DNA of 64,000 nt, from IMG/VR virus record IMGVR_UViG_3300032093_000012, positions 103,476 to 167,475 of that record; one strand, given 5' to 3'. The notes under the pieces were generated by a model. That model was not told the DNA's origin. It worked only from the letters and a program-made list of their open reading frames with translations, and did not search any database. Positions 14,831 through 64,000 of this stretch are shown here, in pieces. The translations under genes were made by a program, and so were the position numbers. Within the stretch, counting starts at the first letter, position 1; each line of letters starts with the position of its first letter. The stretch comes from a virus.

Positions 14831-14848
14831 AACAAAAAAACTCCTATT

Positions 14849-17669: not shown

Positions 17670-17678
17670 TTGTTAACC

Positions 17679-18332: not shown

Positions 18333-18348
18333 AATATAGACCTTTCAA

Positions 18349-26236: not shown

Positions 26237-26239
26237 CTA

Positions 26240-28020: not shown

Positions 28021-28060
28021 TCACCAGCTCCCATCATCAAGTACTATGCTTATTCTGACC

Positions 28061-28088
28061 ATTATAACCTTAATGACAAGAAAGTACA
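28061..28088 (-). promoter_or_regulatory. early-type promoter, leftward
   Basis: On the minus strand: TGTACT (28083-28088), 16 bases, TATAAT (28061-28066). The spacing matches the left-arm early promoters; the -35 differs in one base. It lies in a 176-base gap between peptide deformylase and the nucleotide-metabolism operon that runs left from 28020. Confidence 0.65.
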
Positions 28089-28196
28089 TAGCTGGATCCA
28101 TAGTTGTTGGACCGCCATACTCGAGATGGAATCCCCATGAGAATGGGTTCAGATTAATAGCTACCTGTATATTACTGAATTTTAAGTAGTTCCACA

Positions 28197-28670: not shown

Positions 28671-28681
28671 TTTTTATTATC

Positions 28682-29323
28682 CTATAATTTAACTAAACAC
28701 ACCATACACTTGTCAAAAAAGGAAGAGAAATTATTCAAGTTTGTTTTATTATTCAATATAGACATATTTTCTTCTGTTAAAGTATGGCCAAAATTTTCTT
28801 TTATCCAACGAGGACTAAAATATTCCCATCTCTGATCATGCTTTTGTGCAAAACGACTATACTTATCATTTAAGATCATGATTTCGCTCATCATCTTAGC
28901 ATTACCTTCGTATGTTTCATAGCTAGGATATTTTGTAATAAAACCACCATGATTATTCCACCAAGCAAAACAATCTGTATCAGGTCTCATAACCATTAGC
29001 AACCAATTGCCTTTACTTTTTTCTTTAAGCTCATCAAGCATATAAGCCCAATCGTGACCTTTAACAAACTTGCCAGGACTATATTGATCATCAAAAGCTG
29101 TATTGATATACGAATCTTGAACACTTATATCAAATTCATATTTTCTAAATGGTAAAGCAAAATAAGAACCATGATGTCCTTGAAAGACATTGTGATCATA
29201 ATGACGATTTGGATTTCTATCTGTTATATTTGCTAGTGGGTGTGTTTCTAAAAGATGTGTAACACTAGTCCATTTAGATCCGGGTGCACCAGTAATAAAA
29301 ATTTTGTCTGGTAATTCTATCAT
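28682..29323 (-). CDS. sulfotransferase-like P-loop protein
   Basis: A 213-residue protein starting with a strand and FITGAPGSKWTS, a PAPS/P-loop-type turn (GAPGS-W). It is shared with the plus-strand proteins at 53622 and 55129. A later strand with MVMRPD and a Trp-rich segment follow as in those relatives. ATG 29323 has AAGGAA upstream; the longer frame to 29380 lacks a good site. Nucleotide-dependent transfer (sulfate or phosphate) is inferred; the acceptor is unknown. Confidence 0.7.
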   Translation of the reverse strand: MIELPDKIFITGAPGSKWTSVTHLLETHPLANITDRNPNRHYDHNVFQGHHGSYFALPFRKYEFDISVQDSYINTAFDDQYSPGKFVKGHDWAYMLDELKEKSKGNWLLMVMRPDTDCFAWWNNHGGFITKYPSYETYEGNAKMMSEIMILNDKYSRFAQKHDQRWEYFSPRWIKENFGHTLTEENMSILNNKTNLNNFSSFFDKCMVCLVKL

Positions 29324-29387
29324 GATTTCCTTATAGCATGTTGTCATTTCATTGTCTAAATTTCTAGCATCAAACATCATTACATAT

Positions 29388-29975
29388 TCACCACGATTTA
29401 TGATTTTTTTTAATATAGATATCTGCTTCTTGATATTTTTTTTCTGATATAAGTTCTTTAAGATTATGTCTTTGAAGATTTATAAAAGAAATAACATTTT
29501 TCTTATCTTCTATTCTTAATAGTTCTTTTTCAATAATATCATCGGCAGAATAGTTATTCGAATCCAGTTCGATTAAATTCTTTATAATAGATCCAATAAT
29601 TTTAGTTTCTTTATAAGTTTTAATTTCATCTATAATATATGTGTCATACATTATATCTATAGGTGATTTAGCATAAAATCTAGTGTATCTCAGAATAAAA
29701 TTTTCAAATTTTTCCCAAAGATCTAACTCTATAGCTTCTTCTTGACATTTCTGTAGAATATTAGGTGAATATTGTTGTCTAAATACAATCACCTCTTCAC
29801 CATCTCTAGTATTCCACCCATAGTTATGAATATCATTAAATACTTCTGGCTTTATATGACCATCATAAATGATGTAATCAAATTCTCTAATAGGAATATA
29901 CCAGTGCTTGTATTCACGTATTCCTATGATTCTTTTATCATTGCCACGATATATGTAATATCTATTAGATTCCAT
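29388..29975 (-). CDS. unknown protein
   Basis: A 195-residue, Ile/Lys/Tyr-rich protein, beta-rich in the first third and helical later. ATG 29975 overlaps the stop of the asparagine-synthase-like gene, with GAGG upstream. It is probably part of the same pathway as its neighbours, but nothing in it is recognisable. Confidence 0.7.
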   Translation of the reverse strand: MESNRYYIYRGNDKRIIGIREYKHWYIPIREFDYIIYDGHIKPEVFNDIHNYGWNTRDGEEVIVFRQQYSPNILQKCQEEAIELDLWEKFENFILRYTRFYAKSPIDIMYDTYIIDEIKTYKETKIIGSIIKNLIELDSNNYSADDIIEKELLRIEDKKNVISFINLQRHNLKELISEKKYQEADIYIKKNHKSW

Positions 29976-31044
29976 GATTAATACATCCTCTAAGATCATC
30001 AAGACCTATTTCATTGAAGTCTGTATCAATAGCAATATTCTTATCAAAATTGCTCCAGATAAATTGCAAACTTCCTACTTTTGGTTTTTTAAGATAATTT
30101 GTATGATTTGTATGCTTAACTATAAATTCTTTTGCTGTATATTTATAAGTGTTTAAAGTATTTTGTATTTTTTTATCTTGATTATCTAATGACCATCTTT
30201 GAAATTCTGGAGTATCAAAGAAGTGCATTATATGAGAGAACTTATTTTTAGGATCACTAAATCCTTTTTGAGCTAAATGTCTATATTTTACTAATTGCCA
30301 TTTGTTTGTAAAACTAAACCACCAAACAAAATCAAAACATGTTTTTATCTGAAACGGACAATATTCGAGTGTAGTCGAATACATATCAACAAATAAATCT
30401 ACATTTGGTCTAAATGTAGATCCAAAAAATCTTTTATAAAAATGATTAATATTATTTTTCCAAGGAAGATTTATAGCCTGTTCACCATACAAGTCGACTA
30501 ATGGAATAATAACATCGCTGCCGAATACTTGATCACCAAGTTCTCCAGTAATAATATATCCATCATCTAAAAACTTATCAGTATTTGTTAGTGAATTAAT
30601 AATTCTTCCTTTAAAAATCCTATTAATATCTTTCCACATATCAGGAAATTCTTCGATTGATCTATAAGACATTAAAATATGAAGTCTCTCTAGATCTTCT
30701 TTTGGCCATGAATTAATCATAGAAACTAAAGCAGTTGAACTGTCTATTCCACCACTATACATTAGATAAACTTTAGAGTTATTTGTTTTATTTTTTATAT
30801 CAATAGCTCTGCTAAATGCTAAGTCTTCAAAAGAAGAGTTTACATTTTTGATTTTTAAAATATCTTCAATTGTTTCGCTAGCAACTACAGATTTAAATGG
30901 ATTAATTTGATCTGCAATTTCTAAGCTTACTCTATTAACTGCTTGTACCCATGGCAATTTAGATGTAGGTATCCACCTTGGTAGACCTAACTCTTTAGGC
31001 TTTGGATTATTACCACCAAAGTATAATAAAAGTTTCTTTTCCAT
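29965..31044 (-). CDS. asparagine-synthase-like PP-loop enzyme
   Basis: A 359-residue protein. YSGGIDSSTAL near residue 95 is the ATP-pyrophosphatase motif and TGELGDQVFGSD near 165 the second motif of asparagine synthetase C-terminal domains. The N-terminal glutaminase domain (Cys2) is absent. Stand-alone relatives make amide or lactam bonds, including in beta-lactam and lasso-peptide pathways. It overlaps gene 46 (TAATG), an unusual place for such a gene. Confidence 0.85.
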   Translation of the reverse strand: MEKKLLLYFGGNNPKPKELGLPRWIPTSKLPWVQAVNRVSLEIADQINPFKSVVASETIEDILKIKNVNSSFEDLAFSRAIDIKNKTNNSKVYLMYSGGIDSSTALVSMINSWPKEDLERLHILMSYRSIEEFPDMWKDINRIFKGRIINSLTNTDKFLDDGYIITGELGDQVFGSDVIIPLVDLYGEQAINLPWKNNINHFYKRFFGSTFRPNVDLFVDMYSTTLEYCPFQIKTCFDFVWWFSFTNKWQLVKYRHLAQKGFSDPKNKFSHIMHFFDTPEFQRWSLDNQDKKIQNTLNTYKYTAKEFIVKHTNHTNYLKKPKVGSLQFIWSNFDKNIAIDTDFNEIGLDDLRGCINHGI

Positions 31045-51443: not shown

Positions 51444-51468
51444 TTTTAACTCCGGTATGCCTTTTAAG

Positions 51469-51480
51469 TATTTATAAATA
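51469..51480. promoter_or_regulatory. overlapping divergent late promoters
   Basis: The 12-base palindrome TATTTATAAATA holds TATAAATA on the plus strand (51473-51480) and on the minus strand (51469-51476), sharing four base pairs. It faces gene 13 (start 51443) on one side and the cassette at 51513 on the other. Confidence 0.85.
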
Positions 51481-51512
51481 AGACAGAGTAATAATTATAT
51501 TATGGAGAAAAC

Positions 51513-52214
51513 ATGAAAATACTCAATTATATCAAGAATGAATTCCCCAAGATCAATAATAAGAACTTTAATAAGTTTCTTACCCCAGAATGGGTAGATG
51601 AAAACTTTATGTTTGATCTAAAAGCTGAAGATTACCAAACATTACAAGAATTTTGTGATGCTATGCATGTGAAGTATATTTCTAGATACTTTTCTGGAGT
51701 CTGGAAATCTAAGCATGGATACCCAGAGTCAGGTAGGTATCTCATAAAGTTTGCTAATATGCAGAAACCAAAGTCTGTTTTGGATGTTGGTTGTGGTGAT
51801 AACTATTACAAAGATAAAGTTCAAAATCTAGTAGGTTTGGACCCATATCATCCTAAAGCAGATATTAAGAAGACTCTTGAAGAGTTTGAACCAAAGAAGC
51901 AATATGATCAAGTATTGGCACTTGGTAGCTTAAACTTTGGAACTGATAAAAAACACATCGATACTATGTTTGCTAAAGTTGTAAACATGACTAAGATTGA
52001 TGGTTATCTTTATTTTAGATTTAATCCCGGTATTGATCATAAACCTTTTACTAAAGATAAGACTAGCTTTAAGTTTATTGATTGGTTCCCATGGACTCAA
52101 GAACACATTTTCATGTTAATGAAAGAACATAATCTTAAGATGATTAGATTTGCTATTGAAACAAATCAACAGGGTGATGAAAGATACTTCTATATAATGA
52201 AGAGGTTAGGATGA
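51513..52214 (+). CDS. SAM-dependent methyltransferase-like protein
   Basis: A 233-residue class I methyltransferase. VLDVGCGDNYYK near residue 90 is the SAM motif I and GLDPYH follows as motif II. A later LYFRFNPG strand and a long substrate-side helix complete the fold. It is the first gene of the plus-strand late cassette, with GGAG before the ATG. Substrate unknown. Confidence 0.8.
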   Translation: MKILNYIKNEFPKINNKNFNKFLTPEWVDENFMFDLKAEDYQTLQEFCDAMHVKYISRYFSGVWKSKHGYPESGRYLIKFANMQKPKSVLDVGCGDNYYKDKVQNLVGLDPYHPKADIKKTLEEFEPKKQYDQVLALGSLNFGTDKKHIDTMFAKVVNMTKIDGYLYFRFNPGIDHKPFTKDKTSFKFIDWFPWTQEHIFMLMKEHNLKMIRFAIETNQQGDERYFYIMKRLG

Positions 52215-53020
52215 TAAGTTATACAAATTCACCATATGATCAGTGGACATCTTTAAAAACTAAAGAACCAGTAACATATCATGGTTTCAATGGTCTATAT
52301 GAATTCTGTAAAGCAACAAGTCTATATAATTTTAATAAAAAAGTTGGAGATGATGTAGGTAATATACCAAATTATATTCCAATATGTAAGTTTGAAGGTG
52401 ACTGGCAAGAAGACGTAAAGAAAATGATGTCTCAATCTGAACCAGCTACATTTGACTATAGATCAAACCCACGTTTCGATAACAATAATAACTTAGAATA
52501 TAATGATTTCAAAAAGTGGGGTTATAAAGTAGATGGTGATGATGATTCATATGCTGTCTTAAATAGAATAAGACATGCAGATTTGCCAGACAGCATGACA
52601 AAGATAGCAGAATTGTTTCAATTTGATCATCCTGCTGGAAAAAAGAGTAAAAAACCAAATATAAAGTTTGATGTGCAGATGCCTGGACAAATGTTTTATT
52701 GGCACTTAGATAATTTTGGTGGAATATTAAAAGAACAGAGAGAAGACTATAATACTTTTGCTTCGTGTGATCATGATCAAAGGCTAATCATGAGAGTTAT
52801 AGTATTTTTAGATGATCAAAAAGAAGGTCAAGTTTGGAAACAAGGCAATGAATATATTCACTGGTCAAAAGGTGATTGCATTACTTGGCCTTGGAGAGAT
52901 GTGCCACATGGTACTTGTAACTTTGGTCATGAACCAAGACCTACTTTGAATATTACTGGCGCAGTGACAGAGAAAACATATGAATTTATGAAGTCATGTC
53001 CAAGAGTAATTAGTATATGA
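52211..53020 (+). CDS. 2OG-Fe(II) oxygenase-like protein
   Basis: A 269-residue protein. YWHLDNFGG near residue 160 supplies the His and Asp iron ligands. PWRDVPHGTCNFGH holds the third His, and the following PRPTLNITG the 2-oxoglutarate-binding Arg. It overlaps the first methyltransferase gene by ATGA and the next one likewise. Hydroxylation of a sugar, lipid or amino acid is possible. Confidence 0.75.
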   Translation: MISYTNSPYDQWTSLKTKEPVTYHGFNGLYEFCKATSLYNFNKKVGDDVGNIPNYIPICKFEGDWQEDVKKMMSQSEPATFDYRSNPRFDNNNNLEYNDFKKWGYKVDGDDDSYAVLNRIRHADLPDSMTKIAELFQFDHPAGKKSKKPNIKFDVQMPGQMFYWHLDNFGGILKEQREDYNTFASCDHDQRLIMRVIVFLDDQKEGQVWKQGNEYIHWSKGDCITWPWRDVPHGTCNFGHEPRPTLNITGAVTEKTYEFMKSCPRVISI

Positions 53021-53625
53021 ATGAATTAAACGAATCAATAAAAAAAGTGTTTGATCGTTCCGATCCTAAATTTAGAAAGTTTCATTACAATAAATTCGAA
53101 AAATGTGGTGATGAAACAATACAACTTATTAATCGTATGATTCCAGATTTAGTTTTAGATTTAGGTTGTGGTGACAATCAATATAAAGAACATATAATAA
53201 ATTTAATTGGTATTGATATAACAAATGACCGAGCAGATATTATAACTGATATATCTTCTCTGCCATATGAAGATAATTCAGTCGATGCTTGTTTATGTTA
53301 TGGAAGTATAAATTTTGGTGATGATAATTTAATACATACACAACTTACAGAAATGAATAGAGTATTAAAGAATGGTGGAATATCAGTTTTTAGAGGTAAT
53401 ATTCATAAGAGTGACATGATACCATATTATATTTGGACTGAAGAAAAGATAAAATATTGGACTAATTATTTTAATTTTACATTACAAGTAGAACCTACTA
53501 TAATTCGTAGATTAAAAAGAGATGGCAAAGGTATTAATGATAAATGGAGAGATAGAGCATCAGAACAGGCTGGTGTTTCTCCAAGACCTATTGAAAGATT
53601 ATATTGGATATGGAGAAAACAATGA
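53017..53625 (+). CDS. SAM-dependent methyltransferase-like protein
   Basis: A 202-residue class I methyltransferase with VLDLGCGDNQYK near residue 48 and IGIDITND as motif II, then SLPYEDNSVDACLCYGSINFG. It is a clear relative of the 51513 protein (both share GCGDN-YK and a GSLNFG/GSINFG strand). The pair may methylate sequentially. Confidence 0.8.
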   Translation: MNELNESIKKVFDRSDPKFRKFHYNKFEKCGDETIQLINRMIPDLVLDLGCGDNQYKEHIINLIGIDITNDRADIITDISSLPYEDNSVDACLCYGSINFGDDNLIHTQLTEMNRVLKNGGISVFRGNIHKSDMIPYYIWTEEKIKYWTNYFNFTLQVEPTIIRRLKRDGKGINDKWRDRASEQAGVSPRPIERLYWIWRKQ

Positions 53626-54479
53626 CTGATGGCCATGATCTTATATTTGCTGCTGGAGCTCCTGGTAGCAAATGGAGTAGAGTATTAAGTATACTTGCTC
53701 ATCACAAAGATATTAATTCCTCAGATAAAGAAAAGTTTCCAACCTATCAAACAAAAGTAAGTTTTCATGGTCATGAAAAAAATGTTGGAATGCATTCATC
53801 AGCATACTTTGGACCTGAACATGGTATAGGTGAATTTTTTGATGATTTGACTAATCATACAAAAGAAGAGTTTTTAGAAGAAATTAAGAAAGCTTTTAAT
53901 GATTTTGATCATGGTTATAAAATAATAAAATCACACTGGTTTTCATATAATTTAGATTGGTTAAAAGAAAACTTTCCTAAAGCTAAAATTATAATGGTTT
54001 ATAATGGAGACAATGAAGCTTTTAAATGGTGGCATCTTGTAGGTGGTTGGAATATTAAATTTCCATATTATGGCTGGTATGGCACTGATGAAAAATTGTA
54101 TGAACATATAAAGATAGAGAACAGATTAATATTTGAATTTATGAGAAAGAATAAGCTAAGCTTTAGCATGAAAGACTTTAAACAATTAGTTGATTCACTT
54201 GGCTTAGAAGATGACTTACAATTTTATGATACCATGTTTGAAGAAGATGCTGAATATTTTATAGGCAGAAAAGGATTTAAAAAATATGGCATAGGAACTA
54301 CTATAGCTGTATATAATCCAGATGTGCAAACTAATAGTAATTTAGATGATTTATTACCAAGCATAAATACTAAGATTGCAGATAAACACAATGAATGGCG
54401 TATAGACGAAGTCTTGATAGATCTCTATGGTAAAGATTGGTTAGACAGAATACACGCTATTATAGAAGGAGAGAAATAA
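53622..54479 (+). CDS. sulfotransferase-like P-loop protein
   Basis: A 285-residue protein starting LIFAAGAPGSKWSRVLSIL, the GAPGS-WS turn also seen at 28682 and 55129. A middle segment KIIKSHWFSYNLDWLKENFPKAKIIMVY corresponds to the 3'-phosphate-binding region of sulfotransferases (shown here as a pattern). ATG 53622 overlaps the previous stop and has GGAG upstream. Confidence 0.7.
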   Translation: MTDGHDLIFAAGAPGSKWSRVLSILAHHKDINSSDKEKFPTYQTKVSFHGHEKNVGMHSSAYFGPEHGIGEFFDDLTNHTKEEFLEEIKKAFNDFDHGYKIIKSHWFSYNLDWLKENFPKAKIIMVYNGDNEAFKWWHLVGGWNIKFPYYGWYGTDEKLYEHIKIENRLIFEFMRKNKLSFSMKDFKQLVDSLGLEDDLQFYDTMFEEDAEYFIGRKGFKKYGIGTTIAVYNPDVQTNSNLDDLLPSINTKIADKHNEWRIDEVLIDLYGKDWLDRIHAIIEGEK

Positions 54480-55103
54480 ATGAGAATTAATGCTTTTGTG
54501 TCATTTGATCCCTTGTTTTCAGAGATCAACACAATATTAGAACATCCTTCTACGGCTGATATTGTAGAAGATAAGAATGGTGAACTTTTTGAATTCCCGT
54601 ATCAGAATATAAATGTTATTTCCGGAAGAACATATAGGTCCAGTATAGAGACCGGTGCTCTACCAACTATGGTAGAAAATATGTTTGATACTACTGGAAA
54701 AAATGAAGCAAATTTTGGTATTAGAATAATGAATGGTCTTGCACCAACATCAAGACTAATTTCGGCTTTTAAAGATAATCTTCCATCTGGTTCTAGACTC
54801 TTTTTTATTAAGAAACAAGATCTAAGTGGTGTTGTTGAATATTATCAGAATCTTTATGATACACTAACAGCATCTACTGCTCGCCCAGATCAAATGAGAA
54901 GAAAAGTATTATTTTGTTTGCCGGCTGAAAGTGTAACACATCAACAAATTTCTGATGCAATTTATGAAACTGTCAATTATGTTGATGCTTATTTTTCAAC
55001 ATTAAATGCATCTTCTTTTGCACCATTTACACAATCGCAGTTTGTTTCTGGAGGTTCAGAAATAGATACTGGTTTACTTTATAGAGCAAATGTGATAGTT
55101 TAA
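54480..55103 (+). CDS. unknown protein
   Basis: A 207-residue protein with mixed alpha and beta content, Ser/Thr/Ala-rich towards the end. It starts immediately after the stop of the P-loop gene. Not recognised; it could be a structural or assembly protein because it differs in style from the enzymes around it. Confidence 0.7.
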   Translation: MRINAFVSFDPLFSEINTILEHPSTADIVEDKNGELFEFPYQNINVISGRTYRSSIETGALPTMVENMFDTTGKNEANFGIRIMNGLAPTSRLISAFKDNLPSGSRLFFIKKQDLSGVVEYYQNLYDTLTASTARPDQMRRKVLFCLPAESVTHQQISDAIYETVNYVDAYFSTLNASSFAPFTQSQFVSGGSEIDTGLLYRANVIV

Positions 55104-55128
55104 CAAATTAAACTGTGAATTATATATT

Positions 55129-55833
55129 ATGAGAGATGATCAACTTATATTTTTTATTGGAGCTCCTGGAAGTTCTTGGTCTAGAATAGCATCAATATTA
55201 GAATATTCACCAAAACTTTTATTGAATCTTTCAGATCACACTTCTGAGAGAGAATATTATATTAAGAATAGTAAGTCTTGGTCTCATCTTGTCAATCACC
55301 AAGGTTCTTATTTTGGAACTGGCATGGAATTTGGTTATAGATTCGAATCACCACAAGACTTCTATAATAAAATCTCTTTTAAAAAAGAAATAGCTAAAGC
55401 TTTTTCTGAGCATGATGATTTTCGTAATTATCTAATTAAGAGTCATTCACTAGCCTATAATTTAGATTGGTTAGTAGAAACGTTTCCAACAAGTAAAATT
55501 ATTTTTGTTATAAAACAACCTATAGAAGAATGTGTTGAGTGGTGGCAAAGCGCTGGTGGTTTTGATATATCATATCCAAAATATGATTGGTATAAAAATA
55601 AAGATCTATTGAAAGAATTTAATAGACAACAATATAATATTAAAAAGTTTATAAATGATTGTGAATATCCTGTATATGCTCCGACTAATTCATTTTTCAA
55701 GAATAAACTTAATATAGATATTGATAATAAGCCAGTTAGTGAATATATAAAAGCTATACAATTACTGCCACCAAATGGTGATGGAGATCCTGATCTAAGA
55801 ACTCAGATGTGTTTTTACAATATGGAGATATAA
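55129..55833 (+). CDS. sulfotransferase-like P-loop protein
   Basis: A 234-residue paralogue of the 53622 protein: FFIGAPGSSWSRIASIL at the start, YLIKSHSLAYNLDWLVETFP in the middle and SAGGFDISYPKYDWY later, where 53622 has VGGWNIKFPYYGWY. Two copies in one cassette suggest two related transfer steps. Confidence 0.7.
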   Translation: MRDDQLIFFIGAPGSSWSRIASILEYSPKLLLNLSDHTSEREYYIKNSKSWSHLVNHQGSYFGTGMEFGYRFESPQDFYNKISFKKEIAKAFSEHDDFRNYLIKSHSLAYNLDWLVETFPTSKIIFVIKQPIEECVEWWQSAGGFDISYPKYDWYKNKDLLKEFNRQQYNIKKFINDCEYPVYAPTNSFFKNKLNIDIDNKPVSEYIKAIQLLPPNGDGDPDLRTQMCFYNMEI

Positions 55834-55834
55834 T

Positions 55835-56164
55835 ATGGAATATGATGAAGAAGAACAAAGAAAGATAATTCCTAAGTGCAGAAATAACACTGAACACTTT
55901 GTTGCAGCAAACGGTAGATGGCTTCCATGTTGTGTTTTTCCAACTCATGGACAACAATATGAATCGTCTATATTTAACGATGATAGATATAATATAGACA
56001 ATAACGATGTTCACACCTTTCATTTAGATCTAAAATATTTAGATTGGCTTAACTTTATTTCCAAATCTTATTATGACGCGCCAAAATGTTGTCAGAAGAA
56101 ATGTGGAGTGAACGCTTCTAAGACTACTAGTCATAATCATGAGATACTTCGCTATGAAAAATAG
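55835..56164 (+). CDS. Cys-rich SPASM-like partner of the radical SAM protein
   Basis: A 109-residue protein with Cys residues in the order C15, C32-C33, and a late PKCCQKKCG cluster, the middle written as NGRWLPCCVFP. This resembles the SPASM auxiliary iron-sulfur domain, which is normally fused to radical SAM enzymes. Here it is a separate gene overlapping the radical SAM gene that follows. GGAGATATAAT precedes the ATG. Confidence 0.6.
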   Translation: MEYDEEEQRKIIPKCRNNTEHFVAANGRWLPCCVFPTHGQQYESSIFNDDRYNIDNNDVHTFHLDLKYLDWLNFISKSYYDAPKCCQKKCGVNASKTTSHNHEILRYEK

Positions 56165-56771
56165 TATTCATATTGAACTTACAAATAGATGTAGAATTTC
56201 TTGTCCAAAATGTATTAGAACAATATTGGTCAAGAAAGGTGAACTTAAAAGACAAGACTTATCAATAGAAGCTTGCAAGAAATATGCTGATAGTTTCTAT
56301 GAAAGTTTTATGTTCTGCGGAACATATGGTGATCCTATCTATCATCCACAATTTTTAGAGATAATAAAGCTATTTAAAGACAAAAACAAAGTTGTTAAGA
56401 TTCATACAAATGGGTCAGGAAAAACAATTGAGTGGTGGGAAAATTTCTTCTCTGTGCTCAAAGAACGAGATGAAGTTATTTTTTCTGTAGATGGTCTTCG
56501 AGATACTGCTGGTCTTTATAGAGTCAATATGAGTTCTGAAGATCATGATCAAATTATTGAAGTAATGAAGATGACTACAAAATATAAGTTTAGAGCGAGA
56601 TGGGTATTCATACCATTTAAGACGAATGAACACCAGATTGATGAAGCTATAAAGATGGCTGAGAATATCGGTATAACATTTGAACTTAAGAAGTCTTCAA
56701 GATGGGATGGTTCAAATGACCCATATCTACCAACAGATAAATCACTGATATCATCGTATAGTACAATATGA
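56154..56771 (+). CDS. radical SAM protein
   Basis: A 205-residue protein. C13-x3-C17-x2-C20 (ELTNRCRISCPKC) is the radical SAM cluster site; FCGTYGDPIYHP and IHTNGSG follow as SAM-binding elements. It lacks a C-terminal auxiliary-cluster domain, which the preceding small gene may provide. ATG 56154 is preferred over 56139. Peptide or sugar modification is likely; substrate unknown. Confidence 0.8.
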   Translation: MKNSIHIELTNRCRISCPKCIRTILVKKGELKRQDLSIEACKKYADSFYESFMFCGTYGDPIYHPQFLEIIKLFKDKNKVVKIHTNGSGKTIEWWENFFSVLKERDEVIFSVDGLRDTAGLYRVNMSSEDHDQIIEVMKMTTKYKFRARWVFIPFKTNEHQIDEAIKMAENIGITFELKKSSRWDGSNDPYLPTDKSLISSYSTI

Positions 56772-57490
56772 CTATTAAAGTCTACTGCTTTAAATGGGGT
56801 ACAAAATACGGTCCTGAATATGTAAACAGATTATTATACTCTGTACTTAAAAACTATAGAGGTGATGTCATGTTTACATGCATCACTGATGACAAGTCTG
56901 GATTAGATCCTAGCATCAATATTATTGATTATGATAGTAGTAAAATACTTGGTCTTGGTAATGTTTTTACTATAGAAAAACTAAAATTATTTGACCCACA
57001 TTTTATTGGCGCAGGTCAAAATATATTATTTGATATCGACATACTTTGTCTAAAAGACTTCACTGATTATATAAAAAAATATAACTTCGAAGAACCTAGA
57101 TTTATTAAGAATTATTGGGCTGATCCTAATCAATGCGATGCATATTTTCATAAGGGTGCATGCGACATTAATAGTTCATTTATTACATGGAAAGATGATC
57201 AGTTAGAACCACTATATAAGTTCTATATTGATAATATGAAGAAGATTAATTTTCTCTTCACTAGTTTTGATAAATCTTTATTTGGTATATTTAGAGATAA
57301 ATTGAAGTATCATCCAAAAAATATTGTGTACGCATATAATTTTGGAGCAGATCACAAAGATGATATGAAACCAGAAGTGTTACGTAATGATTATTATTTT
57401 TGTTTATTTAATACATCTCATGGAGTTGGTAAAGAACTTCATGAAGTAGATGGGTGGGCGAAAACAATGTGGGAATCAAAAAGTGTTTAG
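56768..57490 (+). CDS. glycosyltransferase-like protein
   Basis: A 240-residue GT-A-type protein: FKWGTKYGPEYVNRL at the start, FTCITDD and ILFDIDILCL as the DxD region near residue 90. It is a paralogue of the 58187 protein (KWG at the start, TDD, then FDLDVI). ATGA overlap with the radical SAM gene. Confidence 0.7.
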   Translation: MTIKVYCFKWGTKYGPEYVNRLLYSVLKNYRGDVMFTCITDDKSGLDPSINIIDYDSSKILGLGNVFTIEKLKLFDPHFIGAGQNILFDIDILCLKDFTDYIKKYNFEEPRFIKNYWADPNQCDAYFHKGACDINSSFITWKDDQLEPLYKFYIDNMKKINFLFTSFDKSLFGIFRDKLKYHPKNIVYAYNFGADHKDDMKPEVLRNDYYFCLFNTSHGVGKELHEVDGWAKTMWESKSV

Positions 57491-58190
57491 TGTTTTTACT
57501 TTAAAAAAGCAAATAGAAAAATACAATAAAAATTATATTCCCAGATTGAAGATATTTCTTTCTGATTACGAAAAAACAAGAGCTAATATCTTTAGAAGTA
57601 TATTAAATGAATATGATTTTGTTAAGTCAGAGACTGTAACATTTATTGCTAGTGGCTTACCATATTATATATTTGATATATTAAACACGAGATATGAAAC
57701 AGATATTAGTTTTCTAAACAATAGTAAAAAAATAATTAATAAACAAGATGAATTATTTGAAATAACATTAATAAACAATTTAGATTTAGAAACAAAAAAA
57801 CAAAGTAGTATAACTACACAAGTTAAATTGATAGATTATAGCCCTCTAATAAGATCTACATATAATATTGTTAAAGAACATTTTAGTAATTTGTCGTTCG
57901 AATACTTTAATAAAAATGTAAATTTTGAAGATATACGAGATATAACAAAGGACAGTCTCATCATAATACCATACAGCGAATATCTTTATACATTAAAAGA
58001 ACTTAAAATATTCAATAAAGGTCAATATGTACTAGTTTTTAATCAAAAAGAAGATGAAGAAAGAAGAAAAGTAAACACAGCATTTTGTGTAGAAGATCTA
58101 GTTGAACAATGTGGATTTAGTGAAAATATATTTGCACAAAAATATGATGTATGTGGTGTAAGAATGTATGTAGCATTGGGGAAAATATGA
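57483..58190 (+). CDS. unknown protein
   Basis: A 235-residue, Lys/Asn/Ile-rich protein. A GTG at 57483 overlapping the previous stop is the likely start (GGGA upstream); an ATG at 57450 would overlap more. The EYDFVKSETVTFIASGLPYY region and a later LIIIPYSEYLYTLKEL strand hint at a nucleotide-binding or transferase fold, but no family is recognised. It overlaps the next gene by ATGA. Confidence 0.65.
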   Translation: MFSVFTLKKQIEKYNKNYIPRLKIFLSDYEKTRANIFRSILNEYDFVKSETVTFIASGLPYYIFDILNTRYETDISFLNNSKKIINKQDELFEITLINNLDLETKKQSSITTQVKLIDYSPLIRSTYNIVKEHFSNLSFEYFNKNVNFEDIRDITKDSLIIIPYSEYLYTLKELKIFNKGQYVLVFNQKEDEERRKVNTAFCVEDLVEQCGFSENIFAQKYDVCGVRMYVALGKI

Positions 58191-58855
58191 AAAATATAGT
58201 ATGCATAAAGTGGGGGCATCTGTACTCTGCAGAAGATGTAAACATGTTAGAATACATGCTGAAACAAACAGTCACATATCCTTTTCAACTCTACTGTTTA
58301 ACAGATGATTGTTTTGATATCAACAGAAGCATAGAGATAATATCACTACCAAAAGATAATGATCTTGAAGGTCATTGGAATAAGATGTATCTTTTTAATA
58401 AAGATATCATGAAGCTTAATAATTTTACGTACTTTGACTTAGATGTTATTATTCAAAATAATATAGATGATATATTAGATTATGAAAAGAGATTAACTCT
58501 AATTAAAGCTTGGTGGAAAAAATCAGAGGTATGGAAAAACACTTTTAATTCAAGTGTGATGTCCATAGATACGACGAGAGATGCTTATATATGGGGAAGA
58601 TTTATAGAGAATACAGATTATCATATGTGTAAAAACATAGGAGATGATGATTTTCTATTTAATAACTTTGAGTTTGATCACTATCAGCAAAGCTGGTTTT
58701 ATTCAAGAGTATATGGTGAAGAAAAAACTAAAACTAGATACTATAAACCAGAAAAGAAGATATGTCTTTTGAATAGTATGAAGAAGTTTTATTCTAAAGA
58801 ATACTACAAGTTGTTTGTAGAGTTGTATCCGGAATACCAATATCAGCAATCATAG
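58187..58855 (+). CDS. glycosyltransferase-like protein
   Basis: A 222-residue paralogue of the 56768 protein: VCIKWGHLYSAEDVN start, CLTDD, then FTYFDLDVII as the DxD region. Last gene of the plus-strand cassette; its final 62 bases overlap the convergent oxygenase-like gene on the minus strand. Confidence 0.7.
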   Translation: MKNIVCIKWGHLYSAEDVNMLEYMLKQTVTYPFQLYCLTDDCFDINRSIEIISLPKDNDLEGHWNKMYLFNKDIMKLNNFTYFDLDVIIQNNIDDILDYEKRLTLIKAWWKKSEVWKNTFNSSVMSIDTTRDAYIWGRFIENTDYHMCKNIGDDDFLFNNFEFDHYQQSWFYSRVYGEEKTKTRYYKPEKKICLLNSMKKFYSKEYYKLFVELYPEYQYQQS

Positions 58856-59468
58856 ACTGCCATATATCTGCATGCGGGACGATATAACTCAAAGTTAATC
58901 TTGGTGATCTAGTTCTTGCGCAATGCCAATACATTTTTTCTGGTTCTTCAAATGAACCAAAGTAACCTACTTTAACAAACCATCCTTTTTTATCAGGATA
59001 TCTTGTTATTAGATTTGTATTTTTATCATAGTGTTCGAACTCTCCGTCGCCATCTGGATTACATGTTATGACTATATTATAACCAGGAGCGTTTGCATTA
59101 TGATGCCAACCAATATAACCACTTGGTGGATAGTATGCTCTTAACGCATTATTTCTTGCACCAAAGTAGTTGATGAGTTTTTTATCAACACTATCACAAG
59201 CTTCTCTGTAAGTTTTAGATTGCAATTGTTTTGATTTTAAATTATTTTCCATCACAGCGCCTAGCATGTGCTTAGGATAACCATATGCTTTTGGATCTTT
59301 TAATGCTTCCTTTAAATAATTACCAGATGTAGCATATTCACCTTTTTCATTGTCATCGAGTTTTTCATGTGGTATTAACTCTGTCTGATAATCAGAATTA
59401 AAAAACCAACTACTAAACTCTTCTAGAATGACTTTGAGTTCAGGATTTATGTTTGATATGACCTGCAT
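58794..59468 (-). CDS. 2OG oxygenase-like protein with HHN in place of HxD
   Basis: A 224-residue protein with a jelly-roll pattern: YYPPSGYIGWHHNANAPGYN, then GDGEFEHYD, GWFVKVGYFG, a late YWHCARTRSPRLTLSY containing His and the 2-oxoglutarate-type Arg. Where classic enzymes have HxD this has HHNAN, as in some phage oxygenases. Activity is uncertain. ATG 59468 has AGGA upstream. Confidence 0.65.
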   Translation of the reverse strand: MQVISNINPELKVILEEFSSWFFNSDYQTELIPHEKLDDNEKGEYATSGNYLKEALKDPKAYGYPKHMLGAVMENNLKSKQLQSKTYREACDSVDKKLINYFGARNNALRAYYPPSGYIGWHHNANAPGYNIVITCNPDGDGEFEHYDKNTNLITRYPDKKGWFVKVGYFGSFEEPEKMYWHCARTRSPRLTLSYIVPHADIWQSMIADIGIPDTTLQTTCSIL

Positions 59469-60156
59469 GAACAATCCTATCTGGTATAGTATGATGATAT
59501 ATTATTGGTGACTTATCACCATCTGCGCCCTTTATGTCATAGAGCCAAATATAATTCCATCTATAATCATCTGGCATGATTCCAATCTTATATTTGTATT
59601 CACTTTCTTTCAGAAGTCTCCAGAGAGTAAATTGATCCCAACGTTTCATCGATGGAAAATACTCAGGATAGTTCCACTCAGATTTATCTTGTATTAAAAA
59701 CTCTTCGTACCAATCTTTTAAAAGCTTCATGGTATTTTCATTCTTTTTATAGAGCATGAACCCACCATGATACTGCATCTTCTGAGTCTTATTCTTATCT
59801 ATGAATACTTCTTTGCTTACATGTTCTCTTATATTAGTTAACATGATTTCGTTATCTTCGAAGTAATCAAATATAGTATTGAACTCTGATGACATGACTT
59901 CCATATCAGCATCAATGTAGGCTGTAATGTCATATGGTGACATGTACATACCCTTCATCTTGGCTCTTCTATGATATGGAATATCATAACTGATATGATC
60001 AAAATACTTCATATCACGCTCTTTCATAAACTCTTGATGAGTAAAGAGCGTGATACTAGTTTTTGGAGAGTAGTCTTTTATTGATACAGCGCATCTTACT
60101 GCAGAATTATAATATGCAGTAGACATTGAAGCTATAAGAACAACACCACTTTTCAT
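59440..60156 (-). CDS. glycosyltransferase-like protein
   Basis: A 238-residue GT-A-type protein: ASMSTAYYNSAVRCAVSIKDYSP at the start, given in part, then ITAYIDADMEVM as the DxD near residue 85, and a Trp-rich acceptor region with RWDQFTLWRL. It overlaps the oxygenase-like gene by 29 bases. Together they face the tail-fibre genes, so glycosylation of fibres is possible. Confidence 0.75.
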   Translation of the reverse strand: MKSGVVLIASMSTAYYNSAVRCAVSIKDYSPKTSITLFTHQEFMKERDMKYFDHISYDIPYHRRAKMKGMYMSPYDITAYIDADMEVMSSEFNTIFDYFEDNEIMLTNIREHVSKEVFIDKNKTQKMQYHGGFMLYKKNENTMKLLKDWYEEFLIQDKSEWNYPEYFPSMKRWDQFTLWRLLKESEYKYKIGIMPDDYRWNYIWLYDIKGADGDKSPIIYHHTIPDRIVHAGHIKHKS

Positions 60157-60171
60157 CACAAAATAATTATA

Positions 60172-60591
60172 TCAAGAGTTCTTAATAGTCTCTAGTGCTA
60201 CTATTGCTCCAGCATATGCATGGATTTCTGTAAGAGTAGATGCTTTTCTAAGACTAGACTTTAGATCGGTATAAGTTGAATCTCTAATAATAGACATATC
60301 AAAAGCTTCAGACTTAGCTAAGAACAAGATGTTCTGCTTTGCAATCTCATCTTCTTGCTTTTGTTGTTCTTCTCTCTGAGCTTTTCTTTCATTATGAAGT
60401 GCAAGATCATTAGCAGTGTTTTGATCTATAAGTTCAAGTGGAAAAGTTTCTAAGATTTCTTTCCAATCTGGATTACCTTCTTCGGTATCGGTAACACTAG
60501 CTGTTAAGATCCTACCATCTTCATATTCAAATTGACATATGATATGTGTCTTTTCTGTATTTGCCCATCTTGGTGATCTAATAATTCTCAT
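60172..60591 (-). CDS. tail-fibre-associated protein, unknown
   Basis: A 139-residue protein. The N-terminal 50 residues form a small beta domain (RIIRSPRWANTEKTHI), the middle is a Gln/Glu/Lys-rich coiled coil, the end helical. It is the gene directly after a tail-fibre gene, where T4-like phages often encode fibre chaperones; that role is inferred. GAGG precedes the ATG. Confidence 0.6.
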   Translation of the reverse strand: MRIIRSPRWANTEKTHIICQFEYEDGRILTASVTDTEEGNPDWKEILETFPLELIDQNTANDLALHNERKAQREEQQKQEDEIAKQNILFLAKSEAFDMSIIRDSTYTDLKSSLRKASTLTEIHAYAGAIVALETIKNS

Positions 60592-60592
60592 G

Positions 60593-61537
60593 TTAAGCTG
60601 TCCTCACCCATAATGAAACCGTAGAAACGGTTTCTGTACCTGCATTTAATGTTAAACCTGAATATGAACCAGAATAAGATCCAGTATAAAATCCTGTATA
60701 AGTTCCTGAGAAGAAACCGCCAATACTTCCAGCGAAGAATCTTGTATAAGCACCAGTATAGTTACCCGTGTATGCTCCAGAATAGGAACCAGTGTAACTT
60801 ACAGTTGAAGTAGTTTCTCTTGTATCAGAGAATGCCGATCCTCTTGATACCCAAGTACCACCAGAGACAGGAGCAGTTGACTGGACTGCATACTGACCAA
60901 TACCAGTAGCTACTATTCTATTTCTTAATCTCTCAGTAAGAGTCTGTATCTCTGCATCACTCATTTCTTTTACAGAAATCGGTGATGTAGTATTTACTTT
61001 TAAAGTTCTAGATGTACTTGGCGCAGTAGCTGCAGTCTTTCTCCAAAGATATGTAACATTGTTTGCAGCCGCTGTAGTATTCTGGATAGTTCTTTCAGCA
61101 ACCCATGTACCGCCGACAGGAGTAGTAGGAGACAATGAATAACTGCCAACACCAGAATTTACTAGATTGGCCAATGCATTTGAAATTATTGTCGTATTAA
61201 GAGTTGTATCATCTTGTTCAAAAGTATTAGCGCCGGCGCTATAATGAACTGGTCTAACTAAATTTTCAGTAGCAGCTCCCAGATCCTGATAGAAGTTATA
61301 CGTTACTGTCGTGATATCAGTACCAACTGGGTGTTGGCCAACAGTGTATGGTCTATATGTATCACTAAATGTACCTATTAATGTAAAAGAACTATTAGGA
61401 GATACAGTACCAACACCCGTGTTAGAAGCAGCAAATTGTGTTAGAACGATATGCGTTGCATAATCGTAATCAGCATCGCTCATCTCTTTAAAAGAGACTG
61501 GTGAAGTAGAAGTATCTATTTTAAGCGGTCTTCCCAT
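60593..61537 (-). CDS. tail-fibre-type protein with YTG repeats
   Basis: A 314-residue protein. Two copies of an N-terminal module (LK-x-(D/N)-T-S-P-x-S-x-KEMSDA, near residues 5 and 180), followed by VGxGTVS or GQYAVQS segments. Residues about 245-295 are a run of Y/F-T/S-G triplets (YTGSYSGAYTG and so on). Such Gly/Ser/Thr/aromatic repeats suit an elongated fibre or adhesive surface. ATG 61537 has AAGGTG upstream. Confidence 0.75.
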   Translation of the reverse strand: MGRPLKIDTSTSPVSFKEMSDADYDYATHIVLTQFAASNTGVGTVSPNSSFTLIGTFSDTYRPYTVGQHPVGTDITTVTYNFYQDLGAATENLVRPVHYSAGANTFEQDDTTLNTTIISNALANLVNSGVGSYSLSPTTPVGGTWVAERTIQNTTAAANNVTYLWRKTAATAPSTSRTLKVNTTSPISVKEMSDAEIQTLTERLRNRIVATGIGQYAVQSTAPVSGGTWVSRGSAFSDTRETTSTVSYTGSYSGAYTGNYTGAYTRFFAGSIGGFFSGTYTGFYTGSYSGSYSGLTLNAGTETVSTVSLWVRTA

Positions 61538-61556
61538 CAATACACCTTAAACATTA

Positions 61557-61823
61557 TTAAGTTGGAAAAGCTATCGTATTATTTGCATAATACACTTTTA
61601 GTGTAGTAGCGTATGTCATGACATTAGATGTTGACACAGTTACCATACTAGTATTTATATTAACACTACCAACCTGAATATTTGCTGTTGCAGAGATGTT
61701 GCCATTTACTGCAAGAGTAGCTCCTGGTGTAGTAGTCATGATACCAACATTCGATCCAGAAGTATAGATCAAGTTTGTATTAACTATTAGACCGTTTTTT
61801 ACTATAAAAGCTTTGTCTGCCAT
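61557..61823 (-). CDS. small fibre-type structural protein
   Basis: An 88-residue protein with the fibre phrase NVGIMTTTPGATLAVNGNIS (a pattern common in phage and viral fibre stalks, usually VGIGTTSPGAKLDV). Probably a short stalk or adaptor. GGGAACC precedes the ATG and a late promoter lies 34 bases upstream. Confidence 0.75.
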   Translation of the reverse strand: MADKAFIVKNGLIVNTNLIYTSGSNVGIMTTTPGATLAVNGNISATANIQVGSVNINTSMVTVSTSNVMTYATTLKVYYANNTIAFPT

Positions 61824-61856
61824 TAATAGGTTCCCTTTCCCCTATTTTATTATTAC

Positions 61857-61864
61857 TATTTATA
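61857..61864 (-). promoter_or_regulatory. late promoter
   Basis: TATAAATA on the minus strand, 34 bases before the start at 61823. Confidence 0.8.
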
Positions 61865-61880
61865 TGTTGTATATTTAATA

Positions 61881-64000
61881 CTATGGAAAAAAGAATGCTA
61901 AAAATGCTGAAGTTGCTGCGACAACAAAATTTGTAAATAACCAACCCGTATTATTACCGCCATTTGTTGAAGTAGTTCCAGCATACCACGCAGCACCGCC
62001 GGTTGCAATAGAGTCACTGATACTACAGAACGAAACGTCTACTGTTCCTGAAGATTTAGATAGTGTGAAATTAGAAGCAGGAGTATCACTGCCTATTGTA
62101 ATTAAGTTTCCGCTAGTACCATTCAAATCAAAATCATTTGTAAAAGTATTAGTCGTACCAGCTGTAAACAATATAGTAGCTGGTTGAACGCTATTTGTGA
62201 TATTTCGAAAAGTGTTTGTCCCGCTAATAGTAAGTGTTCCTGCACCGCCCTGATTGAGAGTGTTATATGAGTTATCACCACCGACGAATGTTTTTGCAGT
62301 AGCAGAGGTCATATTTATTTTACCAGTACCTGTTGAAGTAAGCGTCCCTGCTGAAATAAGATTTTGTTGAACCAATATTGAAGTTCCAGAAACTGCGGTC
62401 ACTGGTGATGTAGATGGTGTGAAGTTAGCTGTATAAACTGCTGTTCCTTTTACAATTCTAAAGTTTGTAATTTGCCCCGGAAAGTAGCCAGTAGTATCAG
62501 AACCTACACCAATTTTTAAAGGTTTGGCGGAGCCATCATAATAATACATTGTCATACCAGTGGCATTAAATGTAGTAGCATCTGCAACTCCATTTACATA
62601 TAATGTTATAGTATTGCCATTCCTAACTACTGCTACATGATTCCAAGAATTTGCTGTTACTTGTCGAGTTGTTCCGGTAAAACTAACGGTTGAAATACCC
62701 GAAGCGGCGTTAGTGAATGCAAAGTTTAAATATCTGCCAGATGTAACGTTCCAATTCCATGCACCACCTAGTTGCCAAGTGTTAGCGATACCCCTGAGTG
62801 CTCCTAAAGAAGTCGGACGTATCCATGCTTCAATAGTAAAGTTACCAGCATCGAATAAAAATGCATTATTAGCAGGGACATTCAAGAATTGACTTGTGCC
62901 ATTGAACAATATACTACCACTAGCCCCACTGACAAACGGAGTAGCATGATCGTATAAGGCTGTTCCGCTATTTGTTATAGTAACTGGAGCAGCACTTCCA
63001 TCAGTGACGCCAAGATCGTTGCCGTTGAACGCAGCTGCTCCTGCTAGGCTTATTACTAAATCTCCAGTTCCATGAGCCAATACTTTACTGCCTGATCCAG
63101 TAGCAGTAAATCCGCCAGCAGCAGTACATGTATAATTATTTAAATTGAAAGTCCCATTGGTTAGAGTTATAACTCTAGAAGAATTCATTGTAAGAGCATC
63201 TTGAAGTGCCCAAGTACCACCAACACCATTAAACGTAAGTGGAAAAACTAATGTTGCACCATTTGTTGTGATTGTTTTAGTACCACTAGTAGCAGCAAAT
63301 GTCCAAATGTTGGTGCCAGCGGTTAATGTGACTGTTGTTCCTCCAATAAGCAAATTTCCATATATTGTAAGCGCAATATTGCTAACAGTAAAAGAGTTGT
63401 TGTCGATTGTGAGATTTTTAATTGTGTTAGAGGTTGTAAAAGTTGTTGTTGAAGCAGTGTTAGATAATTGAAAACTAATTGAATTTGCTTCTGATAATGC
63501 ACCAGCAGAAATTGTTTTAACTTGATTTGTACCACCACCAGTTAATTGAACAAGAATATTACCGTCAGTAGTCATATTAGTTACAGTAGGAGTACTCCAT
63601 ACAGTCGCAGCAGTATTTAAACTCAATACTATTTTACCACCGGAACCAGTTGTTTGTATTCTTCTAGTGTTTGAATTTGAAGAACTGAAAATACCAAATA
63701 TAGTCATTGTATATGAATTTAAATCTAAAGTGCCGTTTGTTAATGTTACTGTTCTAGAAGTTGATGTGCCTATTGTTAATGCGTCCTGAAGTGCCCAAGT
63801 ACCACCAACGCCATTAAACGTGATTGGAAAATCTAAAATTTTTCCATTTGTTGTTATTGATTGTGTACCAGTAGTAGCAGCAAATGTCCAAATATTTGTA
63901 CCTGCAGTAAGTGTTGGTGTAGTACCAGCAATTGTTAAATCACCGTAAATTGTAATTGCAACGTTTGATAGTGTAAAGGAATTGTTGTCAATTATAAGAT
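61881..64000 (-). CDS. large repetitive tail-fibre protein with LamG-like domain (partial, 5' end outside window)
   Basis: The frame stays open from the stop at 61881 to the window edge. An ATG at 63707 lies in the middle of a repeat and has no ribosome site, so the real start is beyond 64000. At least 706 residues are visible. Two copies of a repeat of about 195 residues (GGTWALQDALT blocks near 63210 and 63795) are followed by a concanavalin/LamG-like domain (FTIEAWIRPTSLG, SWNHVAVVRNGNTITLYVNG). The C-terminus is hydrophobic. LamG-type domains bind glycans, so host recognition is likely. Confidence 0.85.
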   Translation of the reverse strand, partial: LIIDNNSFTLSNVAITIYGDLTIAGTTPTLTAGTNIWTFAATTGTQSITTNGKILDFPITFNGVGGTWALQDALTIGTSTSRTVTLTNGTLDLNSYTMTIFGIFSSSNSNTRRIQTTGSGGKIVLSLNTAATVWSTPTVTNMTTDGNILVQLTGGGTNQVKTISAGALSEANSISFQLSNTASTTTFTTSNTIKNLTIDNNSFTVSNIALTIYGNLLIGGTTVTLTAGTNIWTFAATSGTKTITTNGATLVFPLTFNGVGGTWALQDALTMNSSRVITLTNGTFNLNNYTCTAAGGFTATGSGSKVLAHGTGDLVISLAGAAAFNGNDLGVTDGSAAPVTITNSGTALYDHATPFVSGASGSILFNGTSQFLNVPANNAFLFDAGNFTIEAWIRPTSLGALRGIANTWQLGGAWNWNVTSGRYLNFAFTNAASGISTVSFTGTTRQVTANSWNHVAVVRNGNTITLYVNGVADATTFNATGMTMYYYDGSAKPLKIGVGSDTTGYFPGQITNFRIVKGTAVYTANFTPSTSPVTAVSGTSILVQQNLISAGTLTSTGTGKINMTSATAKTFVGGDNSYNTLNQGGAGTLTISGTNTFRNITNSVQPATILFTAGTTNTFTNDFDLNGTSGNLITIGSDTPASNFTLSKSSGTVDVSFCSISDSIATGGAAWYAGTTSTNGGNNTGWLFTNFVVAATSAFLAFFFP

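What the first reader, a model, noticed from the sequence alone, without database searches (positions are those of the whole stretch)
51513..60156. Late-expressed tailoring cassette between neck genes and tail fibres
Two related methyltransferases, two oxygenase-like proteins, two GAPGS P-loop proteins, a radical SAM protein, two paralogous GT-like proteins plus a third GT, and several unknowns form one coupled run from a late promoter. This enzyme mix is typical of glycan or natural-product tailoring. Expression with virion genes suggests decoration of the virion or fibres, or a released compound.
Basis: partly seen in the sequence, partly recalled or inferred. Interest (0 to 1): 0.75.

Follow-up and report, generated by a model that had tools for sequence, protein, structure and literature searches.

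The report
Late enzyme island beside phage tail fibres
A T4-like environmental virus of bacteria carries, between its tail-fibre genes and a neck gene, a swappable set of thirteen soluble, mostly enzyme-like proteins apparently switched on late with the virion genes, which may decorate the fibres it uses to grip its host.

Summary
The genes are real, conserved and under purifying selection, but they are not one run. c1-c11 (51513-58855, +) form one coupled operon diverging from neck gene g13. c12 and c13 (58794-60159, -) belong to the tail-fibre side and converge on it. The gap 51444-51512 holds GTATTTATAAATAA, the T4 late promoter on both strands, identical in 11 of 11 sequences. This supports late, virion-linked expression. 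Enzyme classes: two methyltransferases, one 2OG oxygenase (AspH-like fold), two divergent sulfotransferase-like P-loop proteins (the 'GAPGS' proteins), a radical SAM protein with a separate SPASM-like partner, GT-A-like proteins and a second oxygenase-like protein (c12). c5 and c10 stay unknown. No isolate phage was found with the + cassette; it recurs at the same place in related IMG/VR contigs. Its c1-c5 part is swapped between two alleles. Sulfotransferase-like, oxygenase and methyltransferase genes form a recurrent kit in aquatic phages. c13/c12 sit beside a YxG-repeat fibre in seven contexts, including phage C48C1. The place corresponds to the known 'host recognition cluster' of pelagimyophages. 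Best reading: tailoring of fibres or virion (0.42). Host-surface and small-molecule readings remain open. No substrate is shown. New variant of a known kind.

The parts
51444..51512 (.). divergent intergenic region with a T4-type late promoter on both strands (GTATTTATAAATAA; TATAAATA + at 51473-51480, - at 51469-51476), about 33 nt before both c1 and g13
   Evidence: (block identical in 11/11 sequences)
51513..52214 (+). c1: class I SAM methyltransferase-like (DVGCGDN), paralogue of c3; lies in the exchanged block
   Evidence: (sub-threshold Methyltransf_23)
52211..53020 (+). c2: Fe(II)/2OG oxygenase; H165xD167, H233, R243 invariant in 31 members; AF2 pLDDT 90; closest fold AspH
53017..53625 (+). 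c3: SAM methyltransferase (PF08241)
53604..54479 (+). c4: divergent sulfotransferase-like P-loop protein (GAPGSKWS); likely start ATG 53622
54480..55103 (+). c5: unknown 207-aa protein, among the fastest-evolving of the run, exchanged together with c1-c4
55129..55833 (+). c6: divergent sulfotransferase-like P-loop protein (GAPGSSWS), paralogue of c4; AF2 pLDDT 92.5
55835..56164 (+). c7: 109-aa Cys-rich SPASM/Twitch-like domain, stand-alone partner of c8; gained or lost together with c8
56139..56771 (+). c8: radical SAM protein (CxxxCxxC), nearest to SPASM maturase type families
56768..57490 (+). c9: GT-A-like glycosyltransferase with invariant DxD (D89, D91), weak GT8 similarity
57450..58190 (+). 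c10: unknown; possible start GTG 57483
58151..58855 (+). c11: glycosyltransferase (phrog_1962), paralogue of c9; likely start ATG 58187
58794..59474 (-). c12: oxygenase-like protein with invariant HxN in place of HxD; reads with the fibre genes
59440..60159 (-). c13: GT-A-like protein (DAD), partner of c12 beside the YxG-repeat fibre
60172..60591 (-). c14: probable tail-fibre assembly protein, by position and conserved block
60593..61540 (-). c15: fibre-like protein with [YF][TSNA]G repeats, candidate acceptor
61557..63707 (-). c16 and c17: tail protein (phrog_3269) and fibre-type virion protein; TATAAATA at 61857-61864 (-) upstream of c16

Best explanation
This is a late-expressed tailoring island inserted between the tail-fibre genes and neck gene g13, inside the phage's host-recognition region. 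Late RNA polymerase fires from one near-palindromic TATTTATAAATA site in both directions, so c1-c11 are made together with the neck, terminase and tail genes (sequence shown, timing inferred). c12 and c13 are made with the fibres (inferred from orientation). Probable mechanism, inferred: the soluble enzymes act in the cytoplasm on newly made fibre or adhesin proteins before assembly. c13 and c12 modify the neighbouring YxG-repeat fibre c15. c2 (AspH/prolyl-hydroxylase-type oxygenase), c7+c8 (radical SAM with a SPASM-like partner), c9/c11 (GTs), c1/c3 (methyltransferases) and c4/c6 (sulfotransferase-like) hydroxylate, glycosylate, methylate and perhaps sulfate the same or other virion proteins. 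Exchange of the c1-c5 allele would change the decoration, and with it binding to hosts or recognition of the virion.
For: Promoter block identical in 11/11 sequences and late-promoter placement. Position between fibres and g13, where Sinorhizobium phage phiM12 and phage Melnitz have fibre or fibre-assembly genes directly beside g13. Block c15-c14-c13-c12 kept in the window, L015, L019, L022, L038, L041 and C48C1, always beside a [YF][TSNA]G-rich protein (9-28 per 315-402 aa; 129 in 2903 aa of C48C1; background 0.15 per 100 aa). ST+MT shortly before g13 in L064, L082 and L107. c2 fold nearest to AspH, with proline hydroxylases and PHD among the hits. c8 nearest to SPASM maturases. Highest-probability fold hit of c6 is tyrosylprotein sulfotransferase, not significant. 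No transmembrane-like segment in c1-c16. Purifying selection. Allele exchange of c1-c5. No NDP-sugar epimerase-family gene found in the record.
Against: No acceptor, product or activity is shown. In many non-T4 phage records the ST/OX/MT families sit with TctA/TctC transporters, AMP-ligases and other metabolic genes, with few virion genes among neighbours. C48C1 has the c12/c13/fibre block but no ST, c2-type OX or MT, so the two parts are separable. An ST-like paralogue (28682-29380) lies in the DNA-metabolism cluster. ST-like proteins lack the canonical 5'-PSB Lys/Arg. c5 and c10 are unexplained.
Confidence: 0.42

Rival explanations
1. Host-surface remodelling: the enzymes alter LPS or another envelope glycan (sugar transfer, sulfation, O-methylation) late in infection, so that progeny do not stick to debris or rival phages are excluded. 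This is the published reading of glycosyltransferases in pelagimyophage host recognition clusters.
For: GT-A enzymes with weak similarity to LgtC-type GT8. PMC7029224 notes GT8 as the commonest family in pelagimyophages and proposes O-chain modification. Methylation and sulfation occur on envelope glycans (general knowledge).
Against: No membrane protein, flippase, polymerase or lipid-carrier enzyme recognised in the run. No epimerase-family nucleotide-sugar gene found in the record. Late promoter rather than early expression, although late timing would still fit prevention of adsorption to debris.
Confidence: 0.2
2. Small-molecule or peptide tailoring: the run makes a compound (modified amino acid, sulfonated or methylated metabolite) that is used inside the cell or released at lysis.
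For: Enzyme mix resembles natural-product tailoring. In other phages the same families sit with TctA/TctC transporters, AMP-binding ligases, GNAT-like and glutamine amidotransferase-like genes. The c2 fold also resembles WelO5, SnoK and free-proline hydroxylases.
Against: In the window cassette no adenylating enzyme, carrier protein, precursor-peptide gene or transporter was recognised. Location is tied to fibres and late promoters.
Confidence: 0.18
3. Mixed cargo: a hypervariable landing site beside the fibres collects unrelated selfish or accessory genes; c1-c11 are two or three independent modules without one pathway.
For: c1-c5 exchange as one allele block while c6-c11 do not. c7/c8 come and go. 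c2+c3 occur elsewhere without the rest (L020, L021). AT-rich composition, 29.8% GC against 35.6% for the late region.
Against: Tight translational coupling, conserved order and purifying selection. ST, MT and OX co-occur far above background (MT in 29/37 and OX in 19/37 ST loci; 75 OX and MT genes in 616 kb against 1 in 312 kb of control).
Confidence: 0.15
4. Nucleic-acid modification: the run hypermodifies phage DNA or RNA.
For: An ST-like paralogue lies near C5-methyltransferase and thymidylate-synthase-family genes at 19471-29380, and L086 shares that neighbourhood.
Against: The cassette itself has no recognised DNA-binding or base-modifying family and late timing would miss much of replication. 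The separate cluster already has such genes.
Confidence: 0.05

Closest known systems
Host recognition cluster (HRC) of pelagimyophages and cyanomyophages (PMC7029224)
   Same: Large variable island in the structural region between fibre-side genes and the neck gene, holding tail fibres plus glycosyltransferases and radical SAM cassettes
   Different: Here a divergent cassette with a conserved two-way late promoter and a sulfotransferase-like/2OG-oxygenase/methyltransferase kit that the passages read do not describe; alleles exchange as a block in one phage group
Sulfotransferase superfamily (Pfam PF13469/PF17784)
   Same: 25 and 4 of 59 family members match at E<=0.1 and no unrelated family matches more than one; APS-kinase-like genes beside some relatives
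   Different: c6 stays below the gathering score and c4 further below; 5'-PSB Lys/Arg replaced by invariant Gly; no Foldseek PDB match at E<=1e-3
Aspartyl/asparaginyl beta-hydroxylase (AspH) and related 2OG oxygenases
   Same: c2: double-stranded beta-helix, HxD...H and invariant Arg; top PDB fold matches
   Different: No Pfam or NCBIfam match; substrate unknown; only a partial alignment to AspH (TM about 0.3)
Radical SAM/SPASM maturases
   Same: c8 radical SAM domain with SPASM-type nearest families
   Different: SPASM-like part encoded apart (c7) and before c8
GT8 / GT-A glycosyltransferases (LgtC, glycogenin)
   Same: DxD motif; best though weak profile matches
   Different: PF01501 not reached in the record
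c12/c13-fibre block of Phage C48C1 (OQ984149)
   Same: fibre with YxG repeats, assembly-like gene, c13 homologue (34%), c12 homologue (28%), same order, also between fibres and g13
   Different: no ST, c2-type OX or MT genes; fibre ORF of about 3350 aa

Membership tests
T4 late promoter | TATAAATA at the -10 position upstream of late genes | tested here: met
   transcription start itself not tested
Host recognition cluster (PMC7029224) | variable island beside tail fibres, bounded by the neck genes | tested here: met
Host recognition cluster (PMC7029224) | other boundary is the VrlC gene | not tested
   VrlC was not looked for in the record
Host recognition cluster (PMC7029224) | glycosyltransferases and radical SAM genes inside | tested here: met
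   c8 PF04055; c11 phrog_1962
PAPS sulfotransferase | match to sulfotransferase Pfam models | tested here: inconclusive
   PF13469 in 25/59 and PF17784 in 4/59 members at E<=0.1; c6 25.0 bits against cut-off 27
PAPS sulfotransferase | 5'-PSB Lys/Arg-Ser-Gly-Thr loop and 3'-PB Arg...Ser | tested here: not met
   GAPGS[K/S/R]WS with invariant Gly14; 3' Arg in many relatives but not in c4/c6, Ser not conserved
PAPS sulfotransferase | sulfotransferase fold | tested here: inconclusive
   AF2 pLDDT 92.5; Foldseek PDB has nothing at E<=1e-3, sulfotransferases recur among top hits (best prob 0.72, TPST-1) beside P-loop kinases
PAPS sulfotransferase | PAPS-dependent sulfonation | not testable with these tools
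   APS-kinase-like neighbours in relatives only; none found in G000
Fe(II)/2OG oxygenase (c2) | HxD...H metal triad and distal Arg | tested here: met
   invariant in 31 sequences
Fe(II)/2OG oxygenase (c2) | double-stranded beta-helix fold | tested here: met
   Foldseek to AspH E 1.6e-5
Fe(II)/2OG oxygenase (c12) | HxD metal motif | tested here: not met
   invariant HxN in 8 sequences
Radical SAM (c8) | CxxxCxxC and Radical_SAM domain | tested here: met
   CRISCPKC in sequence; PF04055 43.7 bits, cut-off 29.5
SPASM domain (c7) | spaced Cys ligands as at the C-terminus of SPASM proteins | tested here: inconclusive
   alignment to L020 protein E 0.032; co-loss with c8
GT8 (c9/c11) | DxD motif | tested here: met
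   invariant D89/D91
GT8 (c9/c11) | PF01501 above cut-off | tested here: not met
SAM methyltransferase (c1/c3) | class I SAM-binding motif and family match | tested here: met
   (c1 only through the joint profile)

The most novel reading that the evidence does not exclude
A phage-encoded system for post-translational sulfation, hydroxylation and glycosylation of its own tail fibres, with the YxG-repeat fibre as acceptor and with alleles of the ST-OX-MT block exchanged between phages to switch the decoration. It would give a function to a large unassigned family of sulfotransferase-like genes in aquatic phages.
Probability: 0.17. Interest if true: 0.85.

Novelty: new variant of a known kind. 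Interest (0 to 1): 0.52.

Why it matters
[quoted passage not shown] One pattern scan found at least 573 IMG/VR stretches encoding this sulfotransferase-like family, and 29 of 37 sampled loci also carry the methyltransferase family. A defined operon with a readable late promoter, a named candidate acceptor fibre and natural allele variants makes the question testable. If the fibres are modified, host range of abundant aquatic phages could not be predicted from fibre sequence alone.

Tried and rejected
Related bacterial genomes for c2: genome-contig scan with A1 gave six pattern matches and no relative. Isolate phages for c2 and c9: none; for c4/c6 only Marine virus AG-345-D19. PDB sequence searches for the ST and c13 profiles: nothing significant; for OX only AtsK at E 0.033 over the H...R part. 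Idea that c5 is a degenerate sulfotransferase: no support from profile-profile comparison. Idea that c10 is a degenerate methyltransferase: same. Homology of c12 to c2: not supported. Idea that the kit is always beside virion genes: rejected; neck protein in only 4 of 27 long records, and recognised neighbours are mainly transporters and metabolic enzymes. APS kinase next to ST as proof of PAPS chemistry: weakened, because matches fall below NCBIfam equivalog cut-offs and none was found in this record. Sigma-70 promoters and terminators inside the run: at chance level. Papers on phage sulfotransferases by exact phrase: none.
Full report
The window is the right-hand part (103476-167475) of a 167,475-bp virus record. 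Core genes are T4-like: g13, g14, g15 and gp17 homologues. The nearest isolates by terminase are Sinorhizobium phages phiM12 and phiN3 at about 58%.

Anatomy. On the plus strand 51513-58855 carries eleven tightly packed genes, c1-c11. ATGA overlaps join c1/c2, c2/c3, c3/c4, c8/c9 and c10/c11 once the likely starts of c4 (ATG 53622) and c11 (ATG 58187) are taken. On the minus strand c12 and c13 (58794-60159) run with the fibre-side genes c14-c17 and overlap c11 by 62 nt. In phiM12 and Melnitz fibre or fibre-assembly genes adjoin g13 directly, so the run looks like an insertion at that junction. Its GC content is 29.8% against 35.6% for the late region.

Promoter. The 69-nt gap between g13 and c1 contains GTATTTATAAATAA. 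This holds TATAAATA on both strands, each about 33 nt from the start codon it faces. The block is identical in 11 of 11 sequences while the flanking bases vary (three of the eleven are the same allele as the window). On the minus strand between 34001 and 63707, eight of nine TATAAATA copies lie within 70 nt upstream of a gene (P about 1e-9). Over the whole window the motif is only mildly enriched (15 found, 8.85 expected). Late expression of c1-c11 is thus well supported by sequence; it has not been measured.

Enzymes. c3 is a clear SAM methyltransferase. c1 belongs to the same family by a joint profile. c2 has invariant HxD, H and R in 31 relatives, and its AlphaFold model (pLDDT 90) matches AspH and other 2OG oxygenases in the PDB. 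c4 and c6 belong to a family of GAPGSxWS proteins; Sulfotransfer_3 is matched by 25 of 59 members and no unrelated family by more than one. Fold search for c6 is not significant, with sulfotransferases and P-loop kinases among the top hits. The canonical 5'-PSB Lys/Arg is absent (invariant Gly14). I therefore call them sulfotransferase-like and do not file them as PAPS sulfotransferases. c8 is radical SAM, nearest to SPASM-type families. c7 carries a similar Cys pattern and is gained or lost with c8. c9 and c11 have an invariant DxD and weak GT8 similarity; c13 is a weaker GT-like protein. c12 shows weak similarity to phage 2OG oxygenases but has HxN in place of HxD. c5 and c10 are unknown. 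None of c1-c16 has a transmembrane-like segment by hydropathy.

Conservation and exchange. The cassette recurs at the same place in L009-L019, L022 and L024 (L009-L012 are near-identical to the window, and several contigs are cut short). All genes compared show Ka/Ks of 0.02-0.45. L022 is 97% identical to L015 in g17 and g13 but 65% and 59% in c2 and c3, where it is 93% and 89% identical to L019. Two alleles of the c1-c5 block are therefore exchanged between otherwise similar phages, while c6-c11 and g13-g18 show no such partition.

A wider kit. Pattern searches found at least 573 stretches with the ST-like family in IMG/VR. Of 37 sampled loci, 29 carry the methyltransferase family and 19 the oxygenase family, often directly adjacent. 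That is 75 such genes in 616 kb, against one in 312 kb of control phage sequence. In L097 and L101 the ST-like gene lies beside an APS-kinase-like gene (PF01583 58 and 56 bits, cut-off 21.1), a small nucleotidyltransferase and a sodium:solute symporter-like gene; NCBIfam equivalog cut-offs are not reached. Many kit loci are not beside virion genes: the T4 neck family was found in 4 of 27 long records, and neighbours include TctA, TctC and AMP-binding enzymes.

Link to fibres. The order c15 fibre - c14 - c13 - c12 is kept in the window, L015, L019, L022, L038, L041 and Phage C48C1. In each the c15 homologue is unusually rich in [YF][TSNA]G repeats: 9-28 in 315-402 aa, and 129 in a 2903-aa stretch of C48C1, against 0.15 per 100 aa in the ORFs of the record. 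ST and MT lie shortly before g13 in L064, L082 and L107. This makes c15 the leading candidate acceptor of c12 and c13. It says less about c1-c11.

Interpretation. The best-supported reading is a late tailoring island acting on fibres or other virion proteins. Steps shown: gene content, operon layout, conserved promoter sequence, conserved fibre block, exchange. Steps inferred: enzyme activities, acceptor, effect on adsorption. The published reading of such islands is LPS modification against coinfection (PMC7029224). The absence of recognised membrane proteins, flippases and epimerase-family genes and the late promoter weigh against it but do not exclude it. A small-molecule product is also possible, given the company these families keep in other phages.

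Novelty. The location and the presence of GT and radical SAM genes there are known for pelagimyophages. The cassette itself, the two-way late promoter, the allele exchange and the ST/OX/MT kit with its fibre-linked c12/c13 partner were not found in the papers I read; the paper search covers open-access papers only. I rate it a new variant of a known kind.

Noticed in passing
window 13236-30002 (-): Cluster interleaved with clamp, clamp-loader and regA genes: C5 cytosine methylase (19471-20670), thymidylate-synthase family (25580-26236), threonine-dehydratase-like (21755-22624), Anp1-like GT (18349-19221), QueC-like (13958-14830), 2OG oxygenase with DUF6817 (15296-16372). Looks like a base hypermodification pathway; L086 shares several of its genes next to an ST-like gene.
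   Followed up: partly
window 28682-31044 (-): Third ST-like protein (28682-29380) near a 359-aa protein (29965-31044) weakly matching PAPS reductase (phrog_424, E 9e-4).
   Followed up: partly
L097:6484-8736, L101:5931-8193: Sodium:solute symporter-like, APS-kinase-like and nucleotidyltransferase-like genes in a row next to ST-like genes; possible sulfur-activation module in phages.
   Followed up: partly
L081:5180-8602, L023:5247-8668, L104: TctA and TctC transporter genes with a small membrane protein (TctB-like by size), an AMP-binding ligase and GNAT-like genes between phage genes in ST/OX/MT islands.
   Followed up: no
window 58797-59474 (-), L027, L041, L097: Oxygenase-like family with invariant HxN instead of HxD; metal binding and chemistry may differ.
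   Followed up: no
L048:3548-4520 and window 55835-56771: Radical SAM and SPASM-like parts encoded as separate overlapping genes, in opposite order in the two phages.
   Followed up: partly
G000:51490-52245 (-): Paralogue of c2 (29% identity) elsewhere in the genome, outside the cassette.
   Followed up: no
L022:18912-19757: Extra ST-like gene on the far side of c16 in a close relative, within the fibre region.
   Followed up: no
window 6871-12404: 21 tRNA genes in one stretch.
   Followed up: no
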